Positions 10,701-23,542 of a DNA stretch of 32,671 bases are shown one piece after another. Within the stretch, counting starts at the first letter, position 1. Every line of letters begins with the position of its first letter. Below the pieces are notes generated by a model, which saw only the letters and a list, made by a program, of their open reading frames with translations, had not been told where the DNA came from and did not search any database. This DNA is from Paludibacteraceae bacterium (lineage in GTDB: Bacteria; Bacteroidota; Bacteroidia; Bacteroidales; Paludibacteraceae): NCBI GenBank assembly GCA_016280845.1, contig JAEEHO010000324.1, forward strand, positions 1 to 32,671. Direction: 5' to 3'. The position numbers and the translations under genes are program-made.

Positions 10701-13700
10701 TGTGGTATCTTTCGGTTGCTTCTGTCTCGGACGAACAATGATGTGGTGGTAGTAACTGCTGTCACAGTTATATACGATTGTGTCGCTGTGGTATTGTACA
10801 CCGTTCCATTTACCTTGCCATATGCCGGCGTACTGACCGCCATTTGCAGCGGCAAAGGTCGGGTTGACCAGATTACCCAATACAACAGGATTGTCCACTA
10901 TGTCTTCTTCGCAACGGAAGGAAGAGTCGTTCTTCGCTAGAGAAGGAATGATACGTAGAGTTAGATTGATAGTAGAGTCGCATCCACAAGCAGTTGTGTC
11001 TCTCCATGTGTAGAATCCTTCTGCCCAGATCTCTGTCGGATTTTGACGACCCAAGATGTACGGCAATTCATGCTCGCATATCGTATCAATTATATTTATG
11101 CTATAAGTGGTGTCAACTTTGATATGCAAAGTATAGATGGTATCACACGCGATGAGTGTGTCTCTAACGACAGTGTCTCTCTGGTAGTTCTTGTCGTTGA
11201 AAGTCACACCTTGTGGTAGGCATCCACGCAATGAGATAGCTGTATCAACCGGTATCTTGACTGTCAAGTCAAGTGTATGGAATGATTTGATACGCCCGTC
11301 GTCATAATATGCAGTATCGTGCCATATACCGGAAGTGTAGATGTAATCTGTGTGTCCGCTGAACGGAGTCCACTGATACGGTGTATCACACTGGAAGATA
11401 GTGGTAACCTTGTAGTCATCCTCGATTACAATCAATTCGTTAATACTGTCGCAACCTGTGATCTGGCTGGTTTGTAGATCGGTGTATGTACCGCCACTCG
11501 TAATCTCTTGTCCGTTCCAGAAGAGTGTCGAATCCTTGCGTAGGATGACGGTCTTTGTGCGTCGCTTAACCGGGAATTGATAGATCTCGGTATAGATAAC
11601 GCTATCGCAATTATTGCTTGAACGCAACATGGTTGTATCGCGATAGATGCTATCCGATCTTAGGTTGAAATAGCGTTTACCGTTGAGTTCTATATACTCG
11701 CCTTCACAGATGCTGATTTGTTGATACATTTCCTTAATCGGATAGATTGTCAAGGTCAGTTTGTAAATACTATCAAATCCGTTAACGGTGAGGTATTTAT
11801 ACTCATATGTCTTTGTTACACCCGGTTCGTGGGAGTGTTCTACATCAATCTTATCCTGCGGACCGTCCAACCAGAAGTACGGAGCTTCGTTCGCGCATAT
11901 TGCAGTATCTTTTGTGAAGGTATAGGTAGGATAGGTGAATACGACTAACTCTTCGCGGTTGTAGCATCCTCCTTCTGCCAATTCTTCATAGCGATATGTG
12001 CCTGCATGATTAATCTTTTGCTCATGCCAGAATCGTGTGGTGTCATTGTCTGCAATCTTCAGCGTGTCGCTAACAAAAGATGCTGTATTGAAATGCAGGA
12101 ATACCTTAACGATACTATCACAACCATGACGCGTAGTGAAATTAGTAATGATAGTGTCGTCCTTGGTGTAGTCCTGACCGTTATAACGAATCACACCGTT
12201 TTCGCTGCACGAGTAGATATGTCGCATAACAGTATCTATTCTCTCCGGCCAAACGGTTAGTTTCAATACGAAGATGGAGTCCGGAGTGGTTGGTGTTGAT
12301 TCTACAGAATCCACATATGTACCCGAAGTATAGTAGAGATTACCTCTCCATTCGAATACATCACCATCGCATATCTCTTTGAGCGTAGTGAAAGTGTTCG
12401 AGTGCTGTGTGGCAGGAATCATTCCGACACCGATCTCGTATGTACTATCACAACCTGTAACGGTGGTATGCTGGTCGCGGAACAAGCCTTCGGTGTTAAT
12501 ACTCAGACCATGCCATTCCAGAACCTCACCTTGTGTGATAGTGGCGGTGTCGTGGTAGTAGTAACTCTGTGACTTGTCAAAGTTGATGCGAACAATACTA
12601 TCGCAGCCATACTGAGTGGAGGTCAGTGTATCATAAACGACAACCGACTCGGTATAAGTCTTACCTTTCCAGATAACTTGGTTACAGAACTGTTCTGTGC
12701 GTGTAGTGCGAATAGCAGGTTTTACGGTCAGTTGCAGTTCATAGATGCTATCTTGGCCGGCAATTGTTTTGTAACGGTCAAAATAACTGGTTGTGGTGCC
12801 GACGCCTTGACGGCTCAGGTTGTTCCTGCCACGCCATGAGTAATCATCACCCTCGCAGATGGTTATTGTCTCAAGGAAATGATACTGGGTGTCGTCCAGA
12901 GTAAGAATGAGTCGATATGTTTCTTTACATCCTGTTTGCGAGTTGTCGTGATATCTGTTGTATGTACCGGCATCGCTGATTGTTACTGTTTCTTGTTGTC
13001 CCTCGTGACTGTAGATCCAGACATAATCGTCTTCTCCATCCCAAGTGGCATTTGTCACATGAACTTGTATCGGGTTCTTTAGGACGGTAATACGATATGT
13101 CGTGTCACAACTGTAGCGGTCAAAGTATGTTCCTGCATCCGAATAGGTCTTTCCGTTGAAACTAACGGTTTCTCCGTCGCAGATAGTCAACGTTTGACTC
13201 AATTCGTGAGACTCCAATACGGTCAGATGCAGACGATAGAGAATCTTGTTGTTTCCTTGTGTCTCTATACGTTCGTATGTCTTGGACTCGCGTCCGGTGA
13301 TACCGTGCCAATACAGAACTTCGTTCGGGCATACTGTGGCGACTGTATCAATCGTATCCACATAGTCGGTGAATAGAACCAGGCGAACGATACTATCGCA
13401 ACCAAATTGGTTGGTCAGCGTCAAGTCATAGATGCCCGGAACCGAGTATGTCTCTCCTGTTACAGACCATGTGTATTCTGTTGTTCCGTCTGTCAAATGA
13501 GGAGCCACCAAACTGGTGTCAATATCCATCACATTCAGAGTCAGTATAACAACTGAGTCGCAGCCGTCTTGATAGTATGTGTGTGTATATACACCCGGCT
13601 CGGTATATGTCATACCACCGAATGTCAAACTGTTACCGCGACAGATAGTCTTTTGAATGTTGGTAGCAGGAATATTCTTGACGGTCAGAATCAAACGATG

Positions 13701-16700
13701 GTAAATACTATCGTTGTTCCCGTCCTTGGTCTTCTCAATCTCCTGATACTGACCTTCTTGTGTGTAACGTCTGTTGCGCCAGTCATAGTAGTCGCCCGCG
13801 CATATGGTCGCGCGCGTTTCTTCTATTAGGTCGTGTTTGTTTGCTATTACAGTAACGATACTGTCACATCCGTTGGCTGTGGTGAAGATGAAATCGTGCG
13901 CTTCGCCCTGGTTGAACTGGTAACCGCGGTAGTAAACCGGGAATCTGACAAATTCAACCTGCTCTGTGGTATGCTTTATCGGATTGACGGTTAGTGTCAG
14001 GTGGTAGATGCTATCCATTCCGTTAGCGGTTTGCATCTCCTTGTAGAAATCGTAAACACCTGCATTCAACGAAGCGTATGTCTGACCATTGACAGGCCAA
14101 GTGTAATTGTCACCTTCGCATATGGTTGCATTTTGCTCAAAGTGGTAAGAACTGTTGTCTACAGTCAAAATCAGTCGATACAGATCGTTGCAGCCTGTGG
14201 TGTTGTTGTATTCCAGATGCGAATAGGTTCCGGCTGCGGTGATGACGGTGTCTTTTGTGGTTCCGTTGATAACTAACCGCCATGTGTATGCGTCATCACC
14301 GTTGAATGTCGCTTGCGTAACATACGTTGTTGACGGATTCTGAGAAACAGTTATGCGATAGATGGTATCGCAGTTGTATGCCACATCGTATGTTCCCGGC
14401 TGCGAATAGGTGTTTCCGTTGAAACCGACTGATTCGCCGGCACAGATAGAGAAGTATTTCTCTACTATCTTTTTGTTTAGACCTGTTACCTGCAGATCTA
14501 GGCGGAAGAGTATCTTGTCACCGTTTGCTTGTGTCTCTACGTTTTCGTAATGACCTGCGGTGTAGTAGCGTACGCCATGCCATTCGATGGAATCGCCGCT
14601 ACATATGGTTGCAGCGGAATCAACGGTGTCCACATGGAATGCGGTCAGTACCAATCGAACGATACTGTCGCAACCAAGTGCATTCTGCATGATGGTATCG
14701 CAGGTGTAAGGCGTAGTATATGTTTTGCCGGTTACATCCCAAGTGAATGTCTGACCTTCATCGCGACGGAATACCTGAGTGGATACGTTGACGTCAGCAA
14801 TGTTTAGGTGTAGCGAAACGATTGAATCACAGCCGTTTGACGCTATCAGGGTGTCATAATATACACCTCTCTCTGTCAGTTGTTTGCCACCGAAAACGAT
14901 GTAGTTTCCGCGGCAGATGATGGTATCTCTCGAACCACCGATTACTGACGGCAGTACGGTCAGTTTCAAGCAATGATAGATGCTGTCATAGCGGCCGTTT
15001 TTGGTCTTCTCTGTCTCGTTGTATTCGCCTGCAACGGTGTAGCGCTGGCCGCGCCATTCGTAGTACGAACCTTGGCAGATAGTCTTTTCTTCGATGTCTC
15101 TGACGATGCGGCGTGTGGCTATGATAGTGATTATGCTGTCGCAACCCGAAGCGTTAGGAATGGTGTCATAATAGGTTCCTTCGTCCGGCATAGTTATTCC
15201 GCGATAGGAAACCGGGAAAGAGAAGAACGTAATGTGCTCCGTACTGCGACCGATAGGATTAACTGTCAGATGCAGAGTGTAAGTGCTGTCTTTGCCGGCG
15301 ATAGTAACGTAATTGTCCACATAATCAAACGTTTGACCGATGTGTTGCGTGCCGAGATTAGTATGCCCGTGCCACTCGAAATCTTCGCCTTCACAGATGG
15401 TCCGGCTCTCTTCAAAATGATACTCGTTGCTATCCACCGTCAAGATGAGGCGATAGATATCCAGACAGCCTGCGGCATTCGGGAACGAATATTCGTATGT
15501 TCCGGCTTCCGTTTCCGGATAGGAGTGCGAGGTTCCGTCTTGGGTATCGAAATTCCAGTTGTATGTGTCCTTGCCGTTGAAGGTAGCATTGGTAATGTAT
15601 ACGGAGTTCGGCTGGCGTGATACGTTGACATAATAGGTCGTGTCGCACGTGTAATAGTCTTCGTACATACCCGGTTCGCTGTAGGTCTTGCCGTTGAATA
15701 TGACGGACGTGCCTTCGCAGAATGTGAGTTGCTTGTTGATGACAACCTGTTTCTTGACGGTCAGATGAAGGATATATAATCGCTTGTCACCATTCGGAAG
15801 ATCCACCAAGCGGGTGTAGTCGCGCGTAGCGTAGCCGACTATTCCATTCCATTCCAAGGAATCTCCCGGACAGATAGTAGCGCTATACTCAATGGTGTCA
15901 ACATGTTGGGTCGTTAAGATCAATCTTGCTACCGAGTCACAGCCGAATCGGTTGATGAATGTGCGATCGTAAACACCTGTTTCTGTGAATGTTTCTCCAT
16001 TCCATACGAACGAGTTACCGGCTGTTATAGTATGCGGGAAAATAGTCGTATCCGGCTTGACGACATTCAGTGAGAGTACTACTATAGAGTCACAACCGGA
16101 CACCTTGAACGTGTCTCGGTGAATGCCGGTGGTTGTGTAGCGCTTACCTGCGAGAGAATAGTAACCACCGTTACATATCGTAGCGTTGGTGTATGTTACC
16201 GGGATGTTTCTTACCGTCAGGTGCAGTATGTGTGTGATACTGTCGCGAAGTCCGTCTTTGCTCATCTCCTGAACAGTATAGGTTGCTCCTTCGGTGAATC
16301 GCCATCCTTGCCAGTCATAGTATTCGCCCTCGCAAATAGAAGCATACTTCTCGTCCACAACATTTCGCTGGTTGACGGTGACATGATATATGCTGTCGCA
16401 ACCGAGCGAGGAAATGTACGTTATATCTTGCGTACTCGGAAAATCAAATCGCATGTTGCGGTAGTAGAATGGGAAAGCGCTCTCATCCACTTCGATCATT
16501 TCGTTTTTCTCGAAGCGCGGAACTACGGTCAGGTGCAGCGCATAGATGCTATCGCGACCGTTTGCGGCATTGTGCTTGATTCTGTAGTCAGTATCCGAGG
16601 TATAGTAGGCTGTGCCTTCCCATACATAGGGCGCATCATCTTCGCAAATAGTAGTGTCTTTCACGATGTAGAAGGCTGTGGATGGGAAGCGTTCTGTTAC

Positions 16701-17075
16701 TGTCAGCGTGTACGTACTGTCGCAGCCCGTGCGTGACTTGTATGTACGCTCGTATGTGCCGGGTTTGTTGATGGTCAGGTTGCGCCATACAAACGATTGT
16801 CCGGCCTCCAGCTCACGAGTTTCGCTGAAGTGGTAGGAAAAACCGAAATTGACAACATAAACGTGAATGCTGTCCTCGTTTGGGCTCGCCACCTTAATGG
16901 TATCTCGAATGATTGTGTCCTTGAAAACTTGGTTAATGCCGTCAAAAGATATCGTATCACCCGGACACAGGTTAAAATGTCGAATGTCAATAATACCGTT
17001 CGCTGCGTAACCATTTACCACAGCTGCGCACATCAACGTTGCGCAACACAATAGTGTATACAAGTGTTTTTTCAT
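4755..17075 (-). CDS. Giant multi-repeat T9SS-secreted surface protein (4106 aa)
   Basis: The protein begins with a signal peptide (MKKHLYTLLCCATLMCAAVV...) and ends in a type A T9SS sorting domain, about residues 4029-4106 (VCGIYFIRARQGEKVSSHKV). It should cross the outer membrane through the type IX system and be anchored or released at the surface. Nearly everything between is a tandem array of about 65-70 modules of ~55 residues. Each follows a pattern like TICEGD.Y.W.G..Y...G.Y.DT....GCDSI..L.LTV, usually with one Cys near the start and one in the GCDSI strand. Some copies have lost a Cys (for example GRDSIYALHLTV). Non-repeat sequence fills about residues 3820-4029. Such arrays suggest a long extended adhesin- or stalk-like fibre; that role is inference. 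It lies 42 bp downstream of an outer-membrane barrel gene, probably in the same operon. The single uninterrupted frame over 12.3 kb argues for selection. Confidence 0.93.
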   Translation of the reverse strand: MKKHLYTLLCCATLMCAAVVNGYAANGIIDIRHFNLCPGDTISFDGINQVFKDTIIRDTIKVASPNEDSIHVYVVNFGFSYHFSETRELEAGQSFVWRNLTINKPGTYERTYKSRTGCDSTYTLTVTERFPSTAFYIVKDTTICEDDAPYVWEGTAYYTSDTDYRIKHNAANGRDSIYALHLTVVPRFEKNEMIEVDESAFPFYYRNMRFDFPSTQDITYISSLGCDSIYHVTVNQRNVVDEKYASICEGEYYDWQGWRFTEGATYTVQEMSKDGLRDSITHILHLTVRNIPVTYTNATICNGGYYSLAGKRYTTTGIHRDTFKVSGCDSIVVLSLNVVKPDTTIFPHTITAGNSFVWNGETFTETGVYDRTFINRFGCDSVARLILTTQHVDTIEYSATICPGDSLEWNGIVGYATRDYTRLVDLPNGDKRLYILHLTVKKQVVINKQLTFCEGTSVIFNGKTYSEPGMYEDYYTCDTTYYVNVSRQPNSVYITNATFNGKDTYNWNFDTQDGTSHSYPETEAGTYEYSFPNAAGCLDIYRLILTVDSNEYHFEESRTICEGEDFEWHGHTNLGTQHIGQTFDYVDNYVTIAGKDSTYTLHLTVNPIGRSTEHITFFSFPVSYRGITMPDEGTYYDTIPNASGCDSIITIIATRRIVRDIEEKTICQGSYYEWRGQRYTVAGEYNETEKTKNGRYDSIYHCLKLTVLPSVIGGSRDTIICRGNYIVFGGKQLTERGVYYDTLIASNGCDSIVSLHLNIADVNVSTQVFRRDEGQTFTWDVTGKTYTTPYTCDTIMQNALGCDSIVRLVLTAFHVDTVDSAATICSGDSIEWHGVRYYTAGHYENVETQANGDKILFRLDLQVTGLNKKIVEKYFSICAGESVGFNGNTYSQPGTYDVAYNCDTIYRITVSQNPSTTYVTQATFNGDDAYTWRLVINGTTKDTVITAAGTYSHLEYNNTTGCNDLYRLILTVDNSSYHFEQNATICEGDNYTWPVNGQTYASLNAGVYDFYKEMQTANGMDSIYHLTLTVNPIKHTTEQVEFVRFPVYYRGYQFNQGEAHDFIFTTANGCDSIVTVIANKHDLIEETRATICAGDYYDWRNRRYTQEGQYQEIEKTKDGNNDSIYHRLILTVKNIPATNIQKTICRGNSLTFGGMTYTEPGVYTHTYYQDGCDSVVILTLNVMDIDTSLVAPHLTDGTTEYTWSVTGETYSVPGIYDLTLTNQFGCDSIVRLVLFTDYVDTIDTVATVCPNEVLYWHGITGRESKTYERIETQGNNKILYRLHLTVLESHELSQTLTICDGETVSFNGKTYSDAGTYFDRYSCDTTYRITVLKNPIQVHVTNATWDGEDDYVWIYSHEGQQETVTISDAGTYNRYHDNSQTGCKETYRLILTLDDTQYHFLETITICEGDDYSWRGRNNLSRQGVGTTTSYFDRYKTIAGQDSIYELQLTVKPAIRTTRTEQFCNQVIWKGKTYTESVVVYDTLTSTQYGCDSIVRINFDKSQSYYYHDTATITQGEVLEWHGLSINTEGLFRDQHTTVTGCDSTYEIGVGMIPATQHSNTFTTLKEICDGDVFEWRGNLYYTSGTYVDSVESTPTTPDSIFVLKLTVWPERIDTVMRHIYSCSENGVIRYNGQDYTKDDTIITNFTTRHGCDSIVKVFLHFNTASFVSDTLKIADNDTTRFWHEQKINHAGTYRYEELAEGGCYNREELVVFTYPTYTFTKDTAICANEAPYFWLDGPQDKIDVEHSHEPGVTKTYEYKYLTVNGFDSIYKLTLTIYPIKEMYQQISICEGEYIELNGKRYFNLRSDSIYRDTTMLRSSNNCDSVIYTEIYQFPVKRRTKTVILRKDSTLFWNGQEITSGGTYTDLQTSQITGCDSINELIVIEDDYKVTTIFQCDTPYQWTPFSGHTDYIYTSGIWHDTAYYDDGRIKSFHTLDLTVKIPVDTAISLRGCLPQGVTFNDKNYQRDTVVRDTLIACDTIYTLHIKVDTTYSINIIDTICEHELPYILGRQNPTEIWAEGFYTWRDTTACGCDSTINLTLRIIPSLAKNDSSFRCEEDIVDNPVVLGNLVNPTFAAANGGQYAGIWQGKWNGVQYHSDTIVYNCDSSYYHHIIVRPRQKQPKDTTYYLCEGDSVQLFWPKTTWIKKDTIYYDTVQTSSAWMDVQHGYMHNDRGYLCDSITRWTIKFVHPEQKDTTAHILMGDSIWWGSAWRYYTGAYDSIGPAKEINTLGEPCRLTYTLHLFVDTAYYFRDSIDVCAKDKERLTYRWNTGYVSEFNAGSRDSVFHVIDSLKTHDRRDSIYDLYVTTRLIPIIHLYDTICEGTSLRFDIHNGTTTTERYLNTAGIYYDTVPGTNLCDSILILHLYVRNRIPATHKSVMITDREIPYYWTHTWWENGTLKDATDTIRAAGEYRFLMPSIHGCDSVDSLHISVHQTHVFCDTITICALAKSTLKHNWADGYQQTYTAPDADQDIHYYDTLQTRIKLDSIYDLYVHYNEVTVTYLDSNICEGDSIRFGLTRMHMPRFLSKSGVYQDTLTRLTNGCDSIIVMRLNAFPIYRRHDTKHISSSEVPYTWEHWQDGVLIGSQQLDASGEYAYHFSASTGCDSIDSLSLRVHQTYLYRDTITICADQTPYEWEGIKDIYTSGDYTKHLQTHDGYDSTLVRHIDVLPILRTTIVDTLCMGDSLRFGLSKLNQPRFLTNQGIYYDTLTSVQYGCDSIIELRLNVFPTYHRHQSVDIADVDTPYTWEHWQAGTLIASEQLKAAGEYAYHFTTTTGCDSIDSLSLRIHPTYYFRDTVTICSNETPYTWYNADHSAVFKEGIYNSDTYYKHLQTKEGYDSTYVRVVNVLQVKNTIIRDSICEKDGNFFTFNGENLSVGGTYRDTLVAANGCDSIVTLILTVNKPYYNYREEHIVEGQNFSYNGELITRDTIITHKGQTPSGCDSTTVLKVIVHPAVDTIVSVCSYDLPYRWVNKWNGQVNELRAAGIYRNDTTYVNGERMFYGLKLVINEPVFTTIYDSICESDRNFYTFAGQDLKVAGTYRDTLTTDKGCDSIITLILKVNKPYYHYREEHIIEGQTLSLYGQIFTEDTIYTQKGQTPSGCDSTTVLKVIVHPAVDTTVTVCSYDLPYQWVNKWNGMVTPLYSAGIYRNDTTYVNGVRMYYGMKLIVNQPKDTTISRTICSDGFYQFKGQNLNIQGEYRDTLVAANGCDSIVKLNLTIIPVSFQREQKTIFEGDSILFYGTYYKTAGTYTHRVDNGNHCYNTHELVLSVLREVHRDTTAIICDNELPYIWHGIPYNETGDYDLRTTWTDSSHVVTTLHLIVHPTKRDERVINLCQGNTYLYKGREYRKDTIFADTIPSLLGCDSIIRYIIRVHPTFSREDTVHISDKQTFDFNGRILKKGGDYVYSDTTKFGCDSIHYLHLVVHPSYFFFDSVDLCKPDTIHWHGKEISKSGLYTDSLLTTRYGFDSVYHIRVNVHDSYFIKEKQEIVPGYETKIHGIDISQPGTYYDTLISIHGCDSIYQIVVNSKRVTEIHQNVEICRGSYYDFFGRLVGAGHYEHPTEHGDTIYTIDVSNRPASVTIAPTAYISSDELPYFRDGQMYPKGDTVYVDSLRNQYGCDSIVRFQIVIAKHLSPWYPMPLCPGSEIKIDGEVITQAGLYTFPRRSKVSGAMDSLYRVEIYDSPAYDLPTERMTICDGDTAVFAGRSITRGGHYDFTLKTKEGCDSILHLDLTVNPSYHFIQDATITDYESYTWMGRTYTSAGTYDRTWPTHLDCDSTYTLRLNVVETQRPATEEVIICEGQAYTWRGNVYDTEGYYTDTVRQLEANISAIYSLQLSIAHPTTITSARASDACADGDGFDISFEYAGQRPTHYSIYFDALAKREGFEDVINEAFKEDMLVHVDLPQFASVVYQNHPYYVRPDYYTMRLVLDNGVCGLSRSDSIRVLVKYPSWIIEQNWGDVVAPLKADYNGGYEFAQTEWYVNDVLQPNNGAGYLYSKQLHAGDQVVMKAMRAGENYFIPSCPLTIVDPNPDVYVNPIIVYPTQAPRHMPVVTIDALIQGEYELYSSTGKFISTGTFEEGETKVTLPLVCGIYFIRARQGEKVSSHKVLIY
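7575..8535 (-). repeat. 480-bp tandem duplication (3 modules x 2) inside giant gene
   Basis: Matching segments lie exactly 480 bp (160 residues) apart: TTCCACTTGTTAACCCA starts at 7681 and again at 8161, and CACAGCCGGATGAAC recurs at the same offset. In protein both copies carry SICE.D.NF.TF, then TPSGCDSTTVLKVIVHPAVD, then a YRNDTTYVNG block. A partial third copy continues towards ~7430. Boundaries are approximate. Confidence 0.85.
8545..9780 (-). repeat. ~516-bp tandem repeat (3 modules) inside giant gene
   Basis: CCAGTG-centred blocks encoding YTWEHWQ.G recur at 8835 and 9351, 516 bp (172 residues) apart. The surrounding PRFL..GVY/IYYDTLT, GCDSIDSLSLR and RDT.TIC segments are collinear. 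Two full copies and a partial third are visible. Boundaries are approximate. Confidence 0.8.
13050..16850 (-). repeat. Three ~1.27-kb super-repeats (8 modules each) inside giant gene
   Basis: The order of eight module types is repeated three times. An AT(F/W)(N/D)G.D.Y.W landmark occurs near 15576, 14301 and 13038, spaced 1275 and 1263 bp (425 and 421 residues). Between landmarks the same series recurs: a TICEGED-type module, a Tyr-Arg-Gly module, KTICQGSYYEWRG, an ICRGN.. module, a VDT...TIC module and a CDTTYRITV module. A partial fourth copy runs to about residue 1500. Boundaries are approximate. Confidence 0.85.
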
Positions 17076-17117: not shown

Positions 17118-18080
17118 TTAGTTGTAGCACATGCATCCATGGTGGAATCCCACGCGTGCCGTACGGCTACCTCCGATCAGGTAAGTCAGTTTCAGCCCCG
17201 TGAAGAACGGTACGGTGTGCGACGGGTGAGCAAAAGTGTTTACGTGAGGATTGATCATTACTTTGGTAGCATCCCACTTGCCGGGTTCTACCTCCGCGGT
17301 TAATTTGGTTTTCCATGTCTCGCCTTCACGGTCACGCAGCTGCGTGTTCAGTCCGTATTCGAAATAGAATGCTGCCTTCAGAATATGGCATATACGGCTC
17401 CGGGAAGGAACAAAAGAAAGAAGGTCGTATCCGATTTCGCCGACTATAGAAGCACCTACATTCAGATTGACGCGGTCGGTGCTCTCGTAGCTGTAGTCGG
17501 TATAGCCGTGCTCAGGCATATCTGCGAACGTCACCTGATATTCGTTGTTCGTTGCGCTCAGGTTAAATGTACCGTTGGTGCGAACGATAGGGTTGATGGC
17601 GTAACTCACTTTCACGCCACCGCCCACATGAAATCCACGAAAATAGTAACCTATCATAACAGGCACATCAACGTAGTTCCATTCCATATAGTCTGTCTGA
17701 CTGACGAGGTAATGAAAAGTTGTCGGTTTGTTTTGTGTGTCCAGGCCCTCGTGATTGTCGATATACTCGTCCACTTCCAACGAAGAACGATGGAAAGTCA
17801 ATTGTGCACCGACGCTGGTCCATAGACCGCTGTTGCGGAATTCATAGCCAAGGCCTACCGAACCACCGGTATCGCCATGTGGAGTAGAGTTAGGAAGTGA
17901 TGTTTGTAGCATCGAATATCCGACGCTGCCACTGATGTAACCAAAATGGAAATTGTCTCCGTCTTCGAACGCACTACGATGTCTGGTCCAGGTCTGGGCA
18001 CTTGCCCCAATAGCCACAATTAACACCAAAATGCAATAGAAAAGTCTCCGACTTGTTTGTCTTAGAAAAAAGTATCTCAT
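17118..18080 (-). CDS. Putative outer-membrane beta-barrel protein
   Basis: 320 residues with an N-terminal signal peptide (FYCILVLIVAIGASAQ) and alternating aromatic/glycine strand patterns typical of a small barrel (GSVGLGYEF, VPVMIGYYFRGFHVGGGVKVSYAI, FFTGLKLTYLIGG). It ends in a short CMCYN tail. It is the first gene of the likely operon with the 4106-residue T9SS protein, separated by only 42 bp. That invites comparison with barrel/giant-adhesin pairs such as SprF/SprB, though I do not see clear PorP/SprF family features. It could be a dedicated secretion or anchoring partner, or a generic PorT-like barrel. A promoter lies about 95 bp upstream. Confidence 0.7.
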   Translation of the reverse strand: MRYFFLRQTSRRLFYCILVLIVAIGASAQTWTRHRSAFEDGDNFHFGYISGSVGYSMLQTSLPNSTPHGDTGGSVGLGYEFRNSGLWTSVGAQLTFHRSSLEVDEYIDNHEGLDTQNKPTTFHYLVSQTDYMEWNYVDVPVMIGYYFRGFHVGGGVKVSYAINPIVRTNGTFNLSATNNEYQVTFADMPEHGYTDYSYESTDRVNLNVGASIVGEIGYDLLSFVPSRSRICHILKAAFYFEYGLNTQLRDREGETWKTKLTAEVEPGKWDATKVMINPHVNTFAHPSHTVPFFTGLKLTYLIGGSRTARVGFHHGCMCYN

Positions 18081-18147
18081 GGTCTTGTGTTTATATTCAA
18101 AATTAAGTATTAGGTAACGTAACGCGCAACACGCTTGTGACGCGTAT

Positions 18148-18161
18148 TTCTATATATAGAA
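18148..18161. repeat. 14-bp AT palindrome in barrel-gene leader
   Basis: TTCTATATATAGAA is a perfect palindrome in the 5' leader between the barrel promoter and its ATG. It could be an operator or a weak RNA hairpin. Confidence 0.35.
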
Positions 18162-18173
18162 TAAATCAGGGGG

Positions 18174-18205
18174 CAAAATTACAAAAAAAAAATGAAACAT
18201 GCAAT
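18174..18205 (-). promoter_or_regulatory. Promoter of barrel/giant-protein operon
   Basis: On the minus strand, ATTG (18202-18205) is followed after 20 bp by TAATTTTG (18174-18181). The -7 box is perfect and the -33 box is one base from TTTG. Confidence 0.65.
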
Positions 18206-18292
18206 TTTTTTAGAAAAAAAGTTAATTTTTTTTGCTATTTTTTTCCTTGATGTAGCAATTTTGGTACTTTTTTCAAAAAAAAACACGAAAGA

Positions 18293-18324
18293 TTTGCACA
18301 TGTCAAAAAAAAGCAGTACTTTTG
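18293..18324 (+). promoter_or_regulatory. Promoter of tRNA-His
   Basis: TTTG at 18293-18296, a 20-bp spacer, TACTTTTG at 18317-18324. It points at the tRNA gene 80 bp downstream. A GCGAGC/GCTCGC hairpin (18383-18397) sits between them. Confidence 0.75.
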
Positions 18325-18403
18325 CACCCGCTTTTGAAAAACGAAGCATTTGTACATCGTACTTTGTAACTTTGTACATCTCGCGAGCAATGCTCGCTCG
18401 ATG

Positions 18404-18476
18404 GTGGTCTTAGCTCAGTTGGCAGAGCATCGGATTGTGGTTCCGAGTGTCGTGGGTTCGAGCCCCACATTCCACC
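18404..18476 (+). tRNA. tRNA-His (GTG), acceptor stem with two mismatches
   Basis: D arm AGCTCAGTTGGCAGAGC, anticodon arm TCGGA-TTGTGGT-TCCGA with anticodon GTG, and T arm GTGGG-TTCGAGC-CCCAC are all intact. A G at 18403 supplies the extra G-1 of histidine tRNAs opposite C73, and CCA is not encoded. The acceptor stem GTGGTCT against ATTCCAC pairs at five of seven positions, with T-T and C-T mismatches at 5-68 and 6-67. The last 19 bp recur 283 bp downstream. It may be functional or slightly degenerate. Confidence 0.88.
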
Positions 18477-18480
18477 CTTC

Positions 18481-18508
18481 AGACATCCTTCGGGATGTCT
18501 TTTTTTTG
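18481..18508 (+). terminator. tRNA-His terminator
   Basis: AGACATCC-TTCG-GGATGTCT, an 8-bp stem capped by a UUCG tetraloop and followed by a T-run. Confidence 0.9.
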
Positions 18509-18616
18509 TTGTAGCCTGTACCTGCGGTACTTATTATCTGTTCGTCCAAGCGTATTTGTAAGCAAGCTTCCATACGCTTGTGCAAACCGCTAATATCCAT
18601 ACGGATTAGGCTACAA
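18509..18616. other. Cloverleaf-like nested inverted repeats (possible structured RNA)
   Basis: The outer stem TTGTAGCCT (18509-18517)/AGGCTACAA (18608-18616) encloses three further hairpins: GTAC-ctgcg-GTAC (18518-18530), AAGCGTAT/ATACGCTT (18548-18555/18572-18579) and ATCC-atac-GGAT (18595-18606). There is no ORF of interest. It sits inside the segment bounded by the duplicated tRNA end. It could be a small RNA, a palindromic mobile repeat or a relic. Confidence 0.35.
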
Positions 18617-18658
18617 TACAAAAAAAAATCGGTGGATGTGCGGGCTCTTAAACCCAGG

Positions 18659-18698
18659 TTCTTATCTCGCTGCGCTCGAACGATCTGCGCTTTGCGCT
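18659..18698 (+). repeat. GC-rich dispersed repeat, copy 1
   Basis: This ~40-bp block (TTCTTATCTCGCTGCG..., containing TCGAACGATCTGC) is nearly the same as a 38-bp block at 22486-22523 inside a DUF4250 gene. More CGCT-rich sequence and a CGGCGC/GCGCCG hairpin (18725-18739) follow here. The ORF called across it on the minus strand is an artefact of the repeat. Confidence 0.7.
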
Positions 18699-18741
18699 GT
18701 GCTCCGCCGCTTCGCTCTGTCGATCGGCGCAATGCGCCGTG

Positions 18742-18760
18742 CGAGCCCCACATTCCACCC
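18742..18760 (+). repeat. Direct repeat of tRNA-His 3' end (att-like)
   Basis: CGAGCCCCACATTCCACCC is identical to the tRNA 3' end at 18459-18477. Repeats of a tRNA 3' end are the usual footprint of site-specific integration. The 283-bp offset is too small for a functional island, so this would be a remnant or a miniature element. No integrase is visible in the window. Confidence 0.6.
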
Positions 18761-18761
18761 C

Positions 18762-18803
18762 AAAAACAAGTCAGCAGCCTTTAGGGTTGCTGACTTTGTT
18801 TTT
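18762..18803. terminator. Terminator-like hairpin after the tRNA-end repeat
   Basis: GTCAGCA (18770-18776) pairs with TGCTGAC (18788-18794), flanked by AAAAACAA and TTTGTTTTT, so it could act in both directions. It directly follows the duplicated tRNA end. Confidence 0.65.
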
Positions 18804-18842
18804 GTTGGAGTGTGTCTTGGCTCGAAGCCATTTTCATCGGGG

Positions 18843-18868
18843 TCCCCGAGAATTTAAATTCTTGGGGA
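18843..18868. repeat. 26-bp palindrome
   Basis: TCCCCGAGAATTT is followed at once by its complement (one G/T wobble), giving a 13-bp-arm palindrome with no loop. The rest of 18869-18978 shows no gene. Confidence 0.5.
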
Positions 18869-18978
18869 GAGCGCAGCGCAAGGCGAAAATAACCGACTTG
18901 TCTGAAAACGGCTGCAAAATTACTGCTTTTATTAGAACTGACCAAAAGTTTGTAACGTATAAGTGAATTTTTTTGAGA

Positions 18979-19410
18979 TTAGAAGCGGTATCGTTCCACT
19001 TTTTGCTTCTCCTCTTCGTTTTTATAGAACACGCGCATAAAGGTTGCCGGCATTATTCCTATTTCAGTAATCTTGCCTTGTTCATCATTCTTGACATAGA
19101 ATCCCATATATCCGCCTTGCTCATCACGCGCGTTGGTAACCATTAAATACGGGTAGCCACCATTATAGACCATCATCGCAAAATGGTATTCGCGATAGGC
19201 TCGTTGCATGGCTGATAATTTGTTTTCGAGATAATCCAAATACTCGTCTTTTGAATGCATCTCTTTCATTGCATAGAAAGTGTGATAGTGCAGATCATCG
19301 TGCAAGTATTTGCGTACAGGCTCATTAGTGTACGTCGTATACGCTTCCTCCAATGCGCGCAAGAACTCTTCTTGCAGTTTGATTGATTCTTCTTTAGTTT
19401 TGATTTCCAT
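18979..19410 (-). CDS. Hypothetical protein, possibly NTF2/SnoaL-like
   Basis: I prefer the start at 19410 (MEIKTKEESIKLQEEFL), giving 143 residues; the track's 21-residue extension is poorly protein-like. It opens with a helical segment, followed by a mixed strand pattern ending YMGFYVKNDEQGKITEIGIMPA. That resembles the small cone-shaped NTF2-like fold, but the resemblance is by eye only. There is no signal peptide or membrane segment, so it is probably cytoplasmic. It lies 107 bp downstream of the DUF2971 gene in the same direction and could be read through from that operon. No active-site motif is recognised. Confidence 0.6.
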   Translation of the reverse strand: MEIKTKEESIKLQEEFLRALEEAYTTYTNEPVRKYLHDDLHYHTFYAMKEMHSKDEYLDYLENKLSAMQRAYREYHFAMMVYNGGYPYLMVTNARDEQGGYMGFYVKNDEQGKITEIGIMPATFMRVFYKNEEEKQKVERYRF

Positions 19411-19517
19411 AAAATGTGTTGTTAGTTTGGTCAAACGTCTTGAGGTTATGTGCGTTTCCATCGAGGTGGCCAAACATGCTATTTGCTATAGAACTAAGAG
19501 CAACTCCAGGCGTAAAT

Positions 19518-20189
19518 TTATACAATTGCAACTTCTATGTTAAAACCATTTTGATGCAAGAGAGTTTCAATTTGTGCTTTTAATTCGTCTAAATTCTGAT
19601 GTGTTCTTTTCGAGGCAATTAGTACCGCAATTAGACATTCATGAGGTAGTTGCCGAATTATATGCTGCTTTCCATTAGATCTCTCATATACTTTTTCTCC
19701 TTCTTGGGGATTGAGGACTAATCTCCACTCTTTTTCATCTTGCCATTTTGTCCTTTTAACCCTAAAACCATTCATGTGAATTACAAACTTAGCTGCTATA
19801 TCTTCTATTGTTTTTCCAAAAACATTTGGGCAATTACTATCTGTATAAACACATGGCATGAATTCTACAATTCTTTGGAATATAGGTGTATTCCGTGAAC
19901 TAAGTACGAGAATAATATTTCCGTAGTCATCTGCGGCATCTCTCATAAACTCTCTACTCTCAGAGAAACAAGAGATGAAAGTGGCTATTAAAGCATCTTT
20001 AGGTATAAATTTGTTTTCGTAAACCCATTTCAATTCATCTGGATCATTCCTCATCTGATCGCTACGAGTAATATGTAATTCGAGGTCTCCATTGTGATTG
20101 AAGATGATTCCCGTAAAACCATTAATATCTGTACAATGATAAATGCATGCGGGTAAATCGGTCCTATGTGCTTTGTGTTCTTGCGCCAT
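19518..20189 (-). CDS. DUF2971-family protein
   Basis: 223 residues with the features I associate with DUF2971: an N-terminal segment leading to RSDQMRNDPDELKW (the conserved NDP-E block), a TFISCFSES strand, and a WQDEKEWRL motif near residue 165. It has no signal peptide and is presumably cytoplasmic. The biochemical function of the family is not established to my knowledge. It is the third gene of a tight run: 11 bp after the two-TM protein gene, which is 7 bp after the LRR gene. The coding DNA looks more AT-rich than the nrdDG or giant genes, suggesting acquired DNA. Confidence 0.7.
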   Translation of the reverse strand: MAQEHKAHRTDLPACIYHCTDINGFTGIIFNHNGDLELHITRSDQMRNDPDELKWVYENKFIPKDALIATFISCFSESREFMRDAADDYGNIILVLSSRNTPIFQRIVEFMPCVYTDSNCPNVFGKTIEDIAAKFVIHMNGFRVKRTKWQDEKEWRLVLNPQEGEKVYERSNGKQHIIRQLPHECLIAVLIASKRTHQNLDELKAQIETLLHQNGFNIEVAIV

Positions 20190-20200
20190 AGTAGTTTAAA

Positions 20201-20731
20201 TTATTCTTTTTCAAATATTTTATAACCGCGATAGATATAATAACGTCCCTTATGGTTCTTATTAGATAACATTGCCCATAAGTGAGTTTTTGAAACGCAT
20301 AAAGGATGGTTCTTATCTACTTTTATGATTTCTGTTGGCTCTGCATTCTCATCCTCTATTGCCGGATATAAATTGTATTCGTCATAAAAGTAGTCTTTTA
20401 TGTTATTAATGTCAGGGAAATCAATATTGTAACTTCCCATAGACCAGTGTTTTTCTTCTATCTTATACAATTTATGCATATATGAATCTCCTAACCCATG
20501 CTTTATTGCTTCGTTGATTTTATTATTCACATACCATCTATGTATGTAGTAGCACAAAAAGACAAATGCAATAATGCCAAGAATGGTCTCATAAGTATAC
20601 TCATTTAGCAAATTTATTCCAGAGAATATCGCTTCTAATCCATAGAATATTGCGATTAGAATAAAGGCGATAATCATTATTCCTAATAGATACATTCCGA
20701 CCGATTGAAAAAAAGACTTTAGCATATCCAT
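20201..20731 (-). CDS. Two-TM membrane protein of unknown function
   Basis: 176 residues. Two hydrophobic helices near the N-terminus (about residues 12-35, YLLGIMIIAFILIAIFYGLEAI, and 47-64, ETILGIIAFVFLCYYI) are followed by a soluble domain of ~110 residues. That domain is rich in Tyr, Asn and Asp and ends in a YYIYRGYKIFEKE strand. No family is recognised. Close spacing to both neighbours (7 and 11 bp) implies one operon with the LRR and DUF2971 genes. The pairing might put the LRR and DUF2971 proteins near the inner membrane, but that is speculation. Confidence 0.7.
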   Translation of the reverse strand: MDMLKSFFQSVGMYLLGIMIIAFILIAIFYGLEAIFSGINLLNEYTYETILGIIAFVFLCYYIHRWYVNNKINEAIKHGLGDSYMHKLYKIEEKHWSMGSYNIDFPDINNIKDYFYDEYNLYPAIEDENAEPTEIIKVDKNHPLCVSKTHLWAMLSNKNHKGRYYIYRGYKIFEKE

Positions 20732-20738
20732 GATATTT

Positions 20739-21806
20739 TTAATAATAAGTTATTTTATATGGAGTAAAAGGAACTATCTTCTTGCGCAAAAATTTTGGTA
20801 ATAAGGCTACACACAATTTAGCCTTTAGAGAGAGAGTTATGCGGTCTTGATATCTTTTCGGTACAGTAAGAGATAATGATGAGCACCACAAAAATGCATC
20901 ATCTCCAATGTACTTAATGCTTTGAGGAATTACCAAGCGTCTTAGTTCCTCGCACACAGAAAAAGCGCTAATACCAAGAGTCTTTAATTTGCTGCCTAAA
21001 TTTACTTCTTTTAGATTCCTACTTCCGCAGAAAGCCCTATCTCCGATCACTTCTATATTGTCCGGGAGTGTTATCTTTTCTAACGAAGTGCAATAAGAAA
21101 AAACACTTTCTTTTATTTCAGTAATACCTATTGGAATATTTATCTCAACGAGAGACTCACAATTTTGGAACGCCTGTTTCTCAATGTTAACAACGGTATC
21201 TGGTATAGTAATCTTAGTTAATGCTTTACATCCATAAAATGCTTTCTCTCCTATTGTTTTAACACCTTCAGGAATAGAATATTCACCTACCATGCCTTCT
21301 GGACATTTAATCACAGAAGAACAATCTTTACTATACATTACTCCATTTATTGAACAATAATTGGGATTCTCAGGTGATACACTTATCTGCTTCAAGCCAT
21401 AAGGATAGGACTCAATGCTATATAAACTTTTGGGTATGTAGAGTGTTGTTGACTCATCACATGTGTGAAAAGATAAAGCTAAAGGTTCGATATGGGTGAC
21501 ACTTTCGGGGATGTTAATTGCTTTAAGACTAGTACACTCAAATAGTGTATCTCGAAGTCTTGTAATTCCTTCTGGTAAGTTGACTTCTGTTAACTTTATA
21601 CACATACTGAATGCACCGCGCCCTATTTCTGAGACACTATCTGGCAATGTGATTTTCTCAATGTATCCACACATGCAAAATGCATGTTTTTCGATTGTAG
21701 TAACCCCATCGGGTATTATATATGCTCCTCGAAAATCTTTTGGACATTTAATAAGTGTCTTGCGGTCTTCGGAGAATTCAACCCCATATTTATCAATGTA
21801 TGCCAT
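20739..21806 (-). CDS. BspA-type leucine-rich repeat protein
   Basis: I start at 21806 (MAYIDKYGVEFSEDRK) because the longer track start reads through the promoter palindrome. The 355 residues contain about ten LRR_5/BspA-type repeats of ~23 residues, with the pattern IP..V..IG..AF..C..L..I. They come in two blocks, each introduced by a GV.YS.D...(L/V)IKCP cap (about residues 8-20 and 158-171). Unlike classic BspA adhesins it has no signal peptide or T9SS/lipobox signal, so it is probably intracellular. Such LRR sheets bind proteins. It is the first gene of the LRR/2TM/DUF2971 operon, with a promoter immediately upstream. Confidence 0.85.
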   Translation of the reverse strand: MAYIDKYGVEFSEDRKTLIKCPKDFRGAYIIPDGVTTIEKHAFCMCGYIEKITLPDSVSEIGRGAFSMCIKLTEVNLPEGITRLRDTLFECTSLKAINIPESVTHIEPLALSFHTCDESTTLYIPKSLYSIESYPYGLKQISVSPENPNYCSINGVMYSKDCSSVIKCPEGMVGEYSIPEGVKTIGEKAFYGCKALTKITIPDTVVNIEKQAFQNCESLVEINIPIGITEIKESVFSYCTSLEKITLPDNIEVIGDRAFCGSRNLKEVNLGSKLKTLGISAFSVCEELRRLVIPQSIKYIGDDAFLWCSSLSLTVPKRYQDRITLSLKAKLCVALLPKFLRKKIVPFTPYKITYY

Positions 21807-21812
21807 GGTAAT

Positions 21813-21836
21813 GTAATTTTGCGGCCGCAAAATTAC
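21813..21836. repeat. 24-bp perfect palindrome overlapping the LRR promoter
   Basis: GTAATTTTGCGG followed by its exact complement. It contains a TAATTTTG -7 box on each strand and lies 7 bp upstream of the LRR start codon. It may be an operator. Confidence 0.6.
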
Positions 21837-21859
21837 TAAAAAAAAATGATATAAGCAAG
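21828..21859 (-). promoter_or_regulatory. Promoter of the LRR/2TM/DUF2971 operon
   Basis: Minus strand CTTG (21856-21859), 20-bp spacer, TAATTTTG (21828-21835). It would give a very short leader before ATG 21806. A second minus-strand -7 box, TACCTTTG, lies at 21971-21978 without a clear -33 partner. The spacer 21873-22099 otherwise holds nothing I can name. Confidence 0.6.
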
Positions 21860-22099
21860 TTTTTCTTCTCAATTCGTCCAGAATTGTGCATTTAGAAACA
21901 AAAATCTTGCGTTAGGGATTGGAAGGACTACGGTTTCTTGATGATTTGTTATATGGAGGCATTTCGCCTGCAAAGGTACTACTTTTCTTGAAATATGTAA
22001 GTTTGGAGCAAAATTTGCTATTTATATGTTACTTGGGGGTGTTTTGCTTGGTTATGGAGGCAATAACGAAATTGCGGAGAAGTTGGTAAGGCTTGGCGG

Positions 22100-22354
22100 C
22101 TATTTAAGGTATAGCATCCTCTCCAGTGCATTCACGGCGGAAGTTATGTCTTGTTCAAAGCGAGTGTGTTCCTTCAGAAAATCGGCCTTGCCGTCAGAGA
22201 TCGTCCTCAATAACTCTCCGCTCATTTCGTCCACGTAAGACGCGATGGCATATTCGATGTCATCCTTCTGCCAATCGAGCGAGGAATGAATATAGACGTT
22301 CCGCTTCTGATGCAGAAAACTATAGGCTATTTCTATGGCTTCCTTCGTAATCAT
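22100..22354 (-). CDS. Small conserved-looking hypothetical (84 aa)
   Basis: A compact, mostly helical protein (MITKEAIEIAYSFLHQKRNV... to NALERMLYLK) with many charged residues and no signal or membrane segment. Its ATG overlaps the stop of the upstream DUF4250 frame as ATGA, so the two were translationally coupled. That coupling must now be impaired, because the DUF4250 gene is frameshifted and its ribosomes would stop elsewhere. No family is recognised. Confidence 0.7.
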   Translation of the reverse strand: MITKEAIEIAYSFLHQKRNVYIHSSLDWQKDDIEYAIASYVDEMSGELLRTISDGKADFLKEHTRFEQDITSAVNALERMLYLK

Positions 22355-22592
22355 GCGTCGTAACCGATGGGTCTAAACTGCTGCTGTTTGTCGCTCCATA
22401 CGAAGCCATTGGTGAGGAGGTGATTTTTCATTTGTTCCGGTTCCCGGTCAAATGCATAGCAAAGCGCTTCGAGCGAGTCGAACTCTTCTTATCTCCGCTC
22501 CGCTTCGAACGATCTGCTGCGCTGTATGCATCACGCAGGAGCATGTTCACGCTCGATACGAGTATAGCAGGGTTTTGTGGTAGATGGTCCAT
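22351..22592 (-). pseudogene. DUF4250 gene disrupted by a 38-bp repeat insertion
   Basis: The frame opens with MDHLPQNPAILVSSVNMLLR, a DUF4250-type start, then runs into SAADRSKRSGDKK and shifts. The other half (DSLEALCYAFDREPEQMKNH...GFVWSDKQQQF) lies in another frame and ends in the TGA overlapping the next gene. The whole interval is 242 bp; removing the 38-bp block 22486-22523 leaves 204 bp, exactly 67 codons plus stop, in the DUF4250 order. The block is a copy of the GC-rich repeat at 18659. DUF4250 proteins are small proteins of unknown function. Confidence 0.8.
22486..22523 (+). repeat. GC-rich dispersed repeat, copy 2 (inside DUF4250 gene)
   Basis: A 38-bp block beginning TTCTTATCTCCGCTCCGC and containing TCGAACGATCTGC. 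It matches 18659-18698 apart from small indels. Removing it restores the host reading frame, which fixes its boundaries to within ambiguity at the ends. Confidence 0.8.
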
Positions 22593-22630
22593 ATCTTAAT
22601 GTTCTCTTATAAGTTGCTCAGTATTGATGA

Positions 22631-23494
22631 TTATTTACTAAATAGTTGCCGAAAAAATTCTACGGCACTATTCACTACTTCGTTGCGGTGGGAGGTGATG
22701 GTGTGATTGACGCCGTGAATGACACGAAGCATAGCCTGGTCTCCGTATGTCTCTGCGTATTTCTCGCTACACCAAAGCGGCACAATCGTATCTTTGTCGC
22801 CATGCAGCAGTAAGACCGGTCCGTGATAAGCCGCGGCAGTTCCAAAGATGTCGAGTTGCTGCGTGGTGAGCAAGTATTCCCGGCCAAGTCTCATGACGCC
22901 CCAACAGCGGATGTACTCCGGCGGGTTCTGCGGGTCAAAGCGTGCGTTGAAGAACTTACCGGCTTGGCACGCCTCTTTGATGACCGATCCGGGAGCCACC
23001 AGCACAACTCCTGCAGGCTTCTTTGGCTCAGAAGCCAGACGTCCGGCTGTCATAGAAGCAATCACGCCGCCTTGCGAATGGCCGAGTAATCCCACCTGGC
23101 TGACGTATGGCAATGTCTGAACGTAGTCCCACACGGTGCGTGCGTCCGCCAGTTCTTTCTCGATGGTCATGTCCTGCATACGTCCTTCGCTCTTGCCATG
23201 TCCGTTAAAATCGAGGCGAATGGAAGCGATACCTGCCCGGGCAAGACCCTTGGCGAAGGATGGGATAGGTACGAAGTCCTTACTGGCGAAGATACCATGC
23301 ATCAAAATCACCATCGGCACCCGGTCTGTCATCGGGTCAAAACCCTTAGGGAGTGTGATGGTGCAAGCTATCTTACCCTGCGGTCCCGAGAGGTAGAGCT
23401 TCTGTTCGTTCTTGCCGCATGCATGTAAGGGGAAGACGAGCATGAGCAGCAAGGCTATTGCTACGCTATAGCGTTGTATGAATCGTTTTTTCAT
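22631..23494 (-). CDS. Alpha/beta-hydrolase lipoprotein (serine esterase-like)
   Basis: 287 residues. An N-terminal hydrophobic signal ends in lipobox LHAC (Cys26), so it is likely envelope-anchored. The hydrolase core shows an oxyanion HG (LMHGIFA, about 65-70), nucleophile elbow GHSQGG with Ser140, acidic residue Asp235 in HGDKD and catalytic His264 in GVNHT. That is a complete triad in the expected order. The size and layout resemble secreted feruloyl-esterase/dienelactone-hydrolase-like enzymes; the substrate cannot be read from the sequence. It stands between a terminator (23543-23581) and the broken DUF4250 gene. I found no clear promoter, though AGGAG lies upstream of the ATG. Confidence 0.88.
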   Translation of the reverse strand: MKKRFIQRYSVAIALLLMLVFPLHACGKNEQKLYLSGPQGKIACTITLPKGFDPMTDRVPMVILMHGIFASKDFVPIPSFAKGLARAGIASIRLDFNGHGKSEGRMQDMTIEKELADARTVWDYVQTLPYVSQVGLLGHSQGGVIASMTAGRLASEPKKPAGVVLVAPGSVIKEACQAGKFFNARFDPQNPPEYIRCWGVMRLGREYLLTTQQLDIFGTAAAYHGPVLLLHGDKDTIVPLWCSEKYAETYGDQAMLRVIHGVNHTITSHRNEVVNSAVEFFRQLFSK

Positions 23495-23542
23495 ATTTTA
23501 TTCATTTTGTTCTCCTTCGACACTCTGTCGATTATAATCAAA

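What the first reader, a model, noticed from the sequence alone, without database searches (positions are those of the whole stretch)
22351..22592. 38-bp dispersed repeat inserted into a DUF4250 gene
A GC-rich block nearly identical to one at 18659-18698 breaks the gene; deleting it restores exactly 67 codons plus stop and an intact DUF4250 sequence. This is direct evidence that the short element moves or is copied into genes.
Basis: seen in the sequence. Interest (0 to 1): 0.6.

Follow-up and report, generated by a model that had tools for sequence, protein, structure and literature searches.

The report
Tiny genus-specific element inserted in genes
A 41-base hairpin-rich DNA element has jumped or been copied into a small bacterial gene and broken it; hundreds of relatives occur only in this one gut-bacterial genus, and about a dozen sit in the reading frame of working genes such as a tRNA synthetase, so it is a newly recognised, still unexplained mobile element that rewrites proteins.

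Summary
The block is real. Eleven DUF4250 orthologues from the same genus lack it, and the insert is exactly 41 bp (+ strand 22488-22528, not 38). It follows a pre-existing TT, has no target duplication, and shifts the frame. It belongs to a family C-TTATCTC-[hairpin 1]-TCGAACGATC-[hairpin 2]-GTATG, with conserved linkers and variable hairpins that covary (hairpin 1 clearly, hairpin 2 weakly). A covariance model finds it in 166 of 178 genomes of this genus (Paludibacteraceae, related to Candidatus Colicola), in none of the other 32 genera of the family, and in none of 148 other genomes of the order. Copies within a genome are mostly identical and differ between genomes, so each lineage amplifies its own version. 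A second empty/filled pair, in histidyl-tRNA synthetase, gives the same boundaries with an exact 42-bp, in-frame insert. About a dozen conserved genes read through a copy in frame, nearly always antisense. Over half of full-length copies sit in 7-bp tandem arrays that continue in phase across the element. No Y1/RAYT transposase was found in this genome or beside the copies examined, so the mobilising enzyme is unknown. It behaves like Rickettsia palindromic elements: a new variant of a known kind.

The parts
22488..22528 (+). The inserted element, 41 bp: C-TTATCTC-h1-TCGAACGATC-h2-GTATG
   Evidence: single 41-bp gap against 11 congeneric orthologues; covariance-model hit 50.2 bits. By base ambiguity it could equally be 22489-22529.
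22486..22487 (+). TT target dinucleotide present before insertion (empty site CTCTT|CATCACG)
   Evidence: orthologue alignment; -3 T 100% and -2 T 92% over 89 copies
22489..22495 (+). conserved linker TTATCTC
   Evidence: invariant in alignment A1
22496..22504 (+). hairpin 1 position (CGCTCCGCT, a poor hairpin in this copy)
   Evidence: non-standard pairs marked
22505..22514 (+). conserved linker TCGAACGATC
22515..22523 (+). hairpin 2 (TGCTGCGCT)
22524..22528 (+). 3' end GTATG
22529..22592 (-). 5' part of the DUF4250 gene (start codon at 22592)
   Evidence: PF14056 positions 1-24; alignment
22351..22487 (-). 3' part of the DUF4250 gene, out of frame with the 5' part
   Evidence: PF14056 positions 19-55, 27.9 bits
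18661..18702 (+). Second copy in the window (h1 GCTGCGC, h2 TGCGCTTTGCGCT, end GTGC)
   Evidence: 54.7 bits, E 6.8e-10
18632..18647 (+). Left arm of an inverted repeat enclosing the second copy (inverse copy of the tRNA-His 3' end)
   Evidence: sequence; similar arms around copies L048 and L210, which lie by tRNA-His, and L057
18743..18758 (+). Right arm of that inverted repeat (direct copy of the tRNA-His 3' end GAGCCCCACATTCCAC)
   Evidence: sequence

Best explanation
The block is one insertion of a very small (39-42 bp in typical full-length copies), genus-restricted, non-autonomous mobile palindromic element. SHOWN: it inserts as a unit (C...GTATG) after a pre-existing TT, with no target-site duplication or loss; it keeps two hairpin slots (covariation is clear for hairpin 1, weak for hairpin 2) separated by conserved linkers; it amplifies within each lineage; and it enters coding genes. 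There, total insert lengths that keep the frame survive as extra peptides in conserved proteins, whereas the 41-bp copy here shifted the frame of DUF4250 and disabled it. INFERRED: spread is by a strand-specific, hairpin-directed cut-and-paste or copy-and-paste reaction supplied in trans, in the manner of IS200/IS605-type ends (hairpin at each end, short 5' target motif, no duplication), by an enzyme not yet identified. That enzymatic step is the weak part (about 0.4).
For: Exact 41-bp gap against 11 orthologues and exact 42-bp in-frame gap in hisS against an 88%-identical orthologue, same element ends, both after TT. Phase: across 89 copies the flanking 7-bp arrays match across the element at offset 0 (63%), against 25-29% at every other offset for period 7. 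Covariation: 42 cells changed on both sides against 8.7 +/- 2.3 shuffled; hairpin 1 97% paired. Distribution: 166/178 genomes of the genus (E<=0.01), 0 genomes in the other 32 genera of the family and 0/148 others of the order (E<=1e-4). Within-genome identity of both hairpins 62% of pairs, between genomes 2%. In-frame copies in HisRS, PdxB, QueA, SufS, DHH phosphoesterase, Melibiase, MATE, TrmO and others.
Against: No Y1/HUH transposase in this genome (85% complete MAG), none beside the copies examined, and no correlation visible across the genus. Intergenic copies between co-directed genes show no strand bias (38 vs 27), which a replication-strand-coupled mechanism would predict. The arms are too short to fold stably: single-strand DNA folding beats shuffles in only 2 of 4 copies, and not for the copy in DUF4250. 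Nearly all genomes are drafts.
Confidence: 0.8

Rival explanations
1. No enzyme: copies spread by replication slippage or template switching at the 7-bp tandem arrays and hairpins, carrying the element along as part of array expansion.
For: Over half of full-length copies (47/87) lie inside 7-bp arrays, which are about 11 times denser within 150 bp of elements than elsewhere; G018 holds tandem copies spaced 63-77 bp in such arrays; tRNA-linked copies show snap-back inverted copies of the tRNA ends.
Against: The DUF4250 insertion has no array on either side, yet has the same exact ends. Copies in unrelated genes share only the element, not its flanks. Slippage does not explain fixed ends after TT at dispersed sites.
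Confidence: 0.2
2. It is a RAYT-mobilised REP sequence (TnpA_REP).
For: Short palindromes with a conserved tag, dispersed, lineage-specific, mostly intergenic.
Against: No Y1_Tnp in this genome; none of the 12 best Y1 loci carries the element within 1.5 kb; G128 has a clear Y1 gene and no copies, while G140 with about 36 copies has only a weak hit. No GTAG/CGTC tag.
Confidence: 0.08
3. Domesticated RNA or DNA signal (for example a transcription or processing site in tRNA leaders) that spread because it is useful.
For: Copies sit at the same place in tRNA-Pro and tRNA-Arg leaders of several species; genic copies are antisense in 12 of 14 cases, while intergenic copies show no antisense excess, suggesting the sense strand is harmful inside an mRNA.
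Against: Most copies are in no consistent position relative to genes, and about a dozen are inside proteins.
Confidence: 0.12
4. Assembly or binning artefact in this draft MAG.
For: Genome is 85% complete in 375 contigs; the 41-bp copy has an odd hairpin 1.
Against: The copy differs in sequence from all other copies of this genome, so it cannot come from collapsing repeats; the same ends occur in an independent gene and species.
Confidence: 0.03

Closest known systems
Rickettsia palindromic elements (RPE) and Wolbachia palindromic elements
   Same: Small palindromic repeats inserted in frame in unrelated housekeeping genes; found in particular lineages; mobilising enzyme unknown as far as I know (reviewed in PMC10969869 and PMC2996958).
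   Different: RPEs are about 150 bp (PMC10969869); this one is 39-42 bp with two hairpin slots, a TT target and association with 7-bp arrays; different phylum, homology not tested; the genic copies here are nearly all antisense to the element strand.
REP / REPIN elements with RAYT (TnpA_REP)
   Same: 20-40 bp palindromes, intergenic bias, lineage-specific sequence.
   Different: No GTAG/CGTC tag seen in the alignment (tags as named in PMC3733652), no RAYT gene associated.
IS200/IS605-derived non-autonomous elements (PATE)
   Same: Hairpin near each end on one strand, insertion 3' of a short motif, no target duplication (architecture from general knowledge).
   Different: No TnpA found; only about 40 bp in all; no replication-strand bias detected.
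Heptamer direct repeats (TAACTGA) of Beggiatoaceae, cyanobacteria and some Bacteroidetes including Paludibacter (PMC4679880)
   Same: 7-bp tandem arrays, mostly between genes, of unknown function.
   Different: Different heptamers here (e.g. GTTGATA, GTCATTT), and here they carry the element.

Membership tests
RPE-like coding palindromes | in-frame insertion into conserved protein genes, absent from orthologues | tested here: met
   HisRS exact 42 bp against the orthologue; MATE insert absent from an 86%-identical orthologue, boundaries not clean; extra segments relative to solved PdxB, QueA and SufS proteins. The DUF4250 copy itself is out of frame.
RPE-like coding palindromes | sequence homology to RPE families | not tested
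   RPE sequences were not compared; the covariance model has no hits outside this genus in its order
REP/RAYT | associated Y1 TnpA_REP gene flanked by the repeats | tested here: not met
IS200/IS605 derivative | no target duplication, insertion after a short fixed motif | tested here: met
IS200/IS605 derivative | ends shared with an autonomous tnpA element | tested here: not met
   no Y1 gene in own genome; none of the 12 best Y1 loci of the genus carries the element
MITE (DDE type) | terminal inverted repeats and target-site duplication | tested here: not met
   ends CTTATCTC/GTATG are not inverted; no duplication
Rfam RNA family | match to a known RNA family | tested here: not met
   only tRNA-His (RF00005) and one sub-threshold sRNA match in 17500-23500

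The most novel reading that the evidence does not exclude
A minimal (about 40 bp) transposing element class whose only conserved content is two linkers and two hairpin slots, moved in trans by an enzyme type not yet known, which preferentially lands in 7-bp arrays and systematically donates 13-14-residue peptides to conserved proteins of one bacterial genus.
Probability: 0.3. Interest if true: 0.8.

Novelty: new variant of a known kind. Interest (0 to 1): 0.6.

Why it matters
Coding palindromes that insert in frame into conserved genes are best known from Rickettsia and Wolbachia, where to my knowledge the mechanism has stayed unknown. Here the same behaviour appears in a gut genus with 178 sequenced species, species-specific variants, exact ends, a target motif and several empty/filled comparisons, which makes the mechanism and the protein consequences directly testable.

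Tried and rejected
Ungapped pattern search found only the two window copies plus one further true copy among chance matches; the covariance model was needed to find 7-8 own copies. Plasmid BLAST gave only weak partial matches. The viral-contig scan gave 19 single matches that were not followed up. Local GC-skew bias of orientation (+0.036) was discarded because the arrays themselves are skewed. A single long hairpin joining both palindromes (suggested by folding of two copies) was rejected: types such as CTTACAG...TGCTTCGCT cannot form it, while each hairpin slot pairs with itself. No paper describing this element was found.

Full report
1. Observation. On the minus strand a DUF4250 gene runs from 22592 to 22351. 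PF14056 matches its N-terminal and C-terminal halves separately and in different frames. Alignment with 11 orthologues of the same genus shows one insertion of exactly 41 bp, + strand 22488-22528, in an otherwise intact gene. The empty site is CTCTT|CATCACG. The element begins C-TTATCTC and ends GTATG, and nothing is duplicated or lost.

2. The family. Two copies are in the window (18661-18702 and 22488-22528). Searches of the genus with the linkers TTATCTC...CGAACGATCT found 77 places in 40 of 178 genomes, and none with the reversed pattern. Alignment gives C-TTATCTC-h1-TCGAACGATC-h2-GTATG, with invariant linkers and two variable hairpins. Pair counts support the structure: 88.7% paired against 74% shuffled, and 42 double changes against 8.7. 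Nearly all of this support is in h1; h2 has few double changes and its second pair is usually not a standard pair. It finds none in the 32 other genera of Paludibacteraceae and none in 148 other genomes of the order. The genus is linked to Candidatus Colicola through matching contig positions.

3. Movement. Within a genome 62% of copy pairs share both hairpins exactly; between genomes 2% do. Each lineage has amplified its own variant. Shorter types that lack the typical 3' half also exist, for example three in this genome.

4. Exact ends. In hisS of G191 the insert is exactly 42 bp, C...GTATG after TT, compared with an 88%-identical orthologue. In 47 of 87 full-length copies the element interrupts an array of 7-bp repeats that continues in phase on the other side. 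Period-7 arrays are a feature of these genomes on their own (0.19 per kb away from elements, other periods at most 0.06), and are about 11 times denser next to elements.

5. Inside proteins. Among 117 distinct copies examined, 14 lie inside genes; 12 are antisense to the gene. Read-through proteins include HisRS, erythronate-4-phosphate dehydrogenase, QueA, SufS, a DHH phosphoesterase, a Melibiase, a FAD-dependent protein, TrmO and the MATE transporter of this very genome. The MATE insert is absent from an 86%-identical orthologue, although the junctions there are not clean. Since intergenic copies between co-directed genes show no such bias (38 vs 27), the antisense excess probably reflects selection against the sense strand inside mRNAs, or against its peptides; this is inference.

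6. Mechanism. Boundaries, target and absence of duplication resemble IS200/IS605-type single-strand insertion, but no Y1 transposase was found in this genome, near the copies, or in step with copy number. The enzyme, if any, is unknown. Slippage at the 7-bp arrays is the main rival, but the DUF4250 site has no array.

7. Placement. It works like Rickettsia palindromic elements (PMC10969869, PMC2996958), but size, structure, target and host differ and homology was not tested. It is filed as a new variant of a known kind.

8. Limits.

Noticed in passing
window 18404-18762: A tRNA-His gene is followed by the second element copy, enclosed in an inverted repeat made from copies of the tRNA-His 3' end; the same arrangement recurs by tRNA-His in L048 and L210, and with similar arms in L057.
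   Followed up: partly
L046, L050, L054, L067, L224 (tRNA-Pro); L059, L069, L070 (tRNA-Arg): Element copies lie in the leaders of tRNA-Pro(TGG) and tRNA-Arg(CCT), where the 3' arm of the second hairpin is the 5' end of the tRNA itself, so leader and tRNA could form alternative folds.
   Followed up: partly
genus-wide, e.g. L277-L286, L287-L290: Arrays of 7-bp tandem repeats (GTTGATA, GTCATTT, CAGATTT and others), species-specific, also translated in frame inside proteins (e.g. SPLTSHL repeats in L068).
   Followed up: partly
L194 (G108:C17), L197: A common hairpin GATCCTGAAACAAGTTC-AGGATGACG is interrupted by the element in L194; a reverse-complement form without the element occurs in L197.
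   Followed up: no
L340, L342, L353, L356, L364 (hisS): The HisRS loop that holds the element in G191 carries other insertions in other species (up to about 23 residues): an insertion-tolerant site.
   Followed up: no
window 4755-17075: A 4106-codon open frame on the minus strand with many diverged internal repeats, possibly a giant surface protein.
   Followed up: no
G000:C323:8063-8230 (L020): A second, intact DUF4250 gene in the same genome, which may make loss of the window copy tolerable.
   Followed up: no
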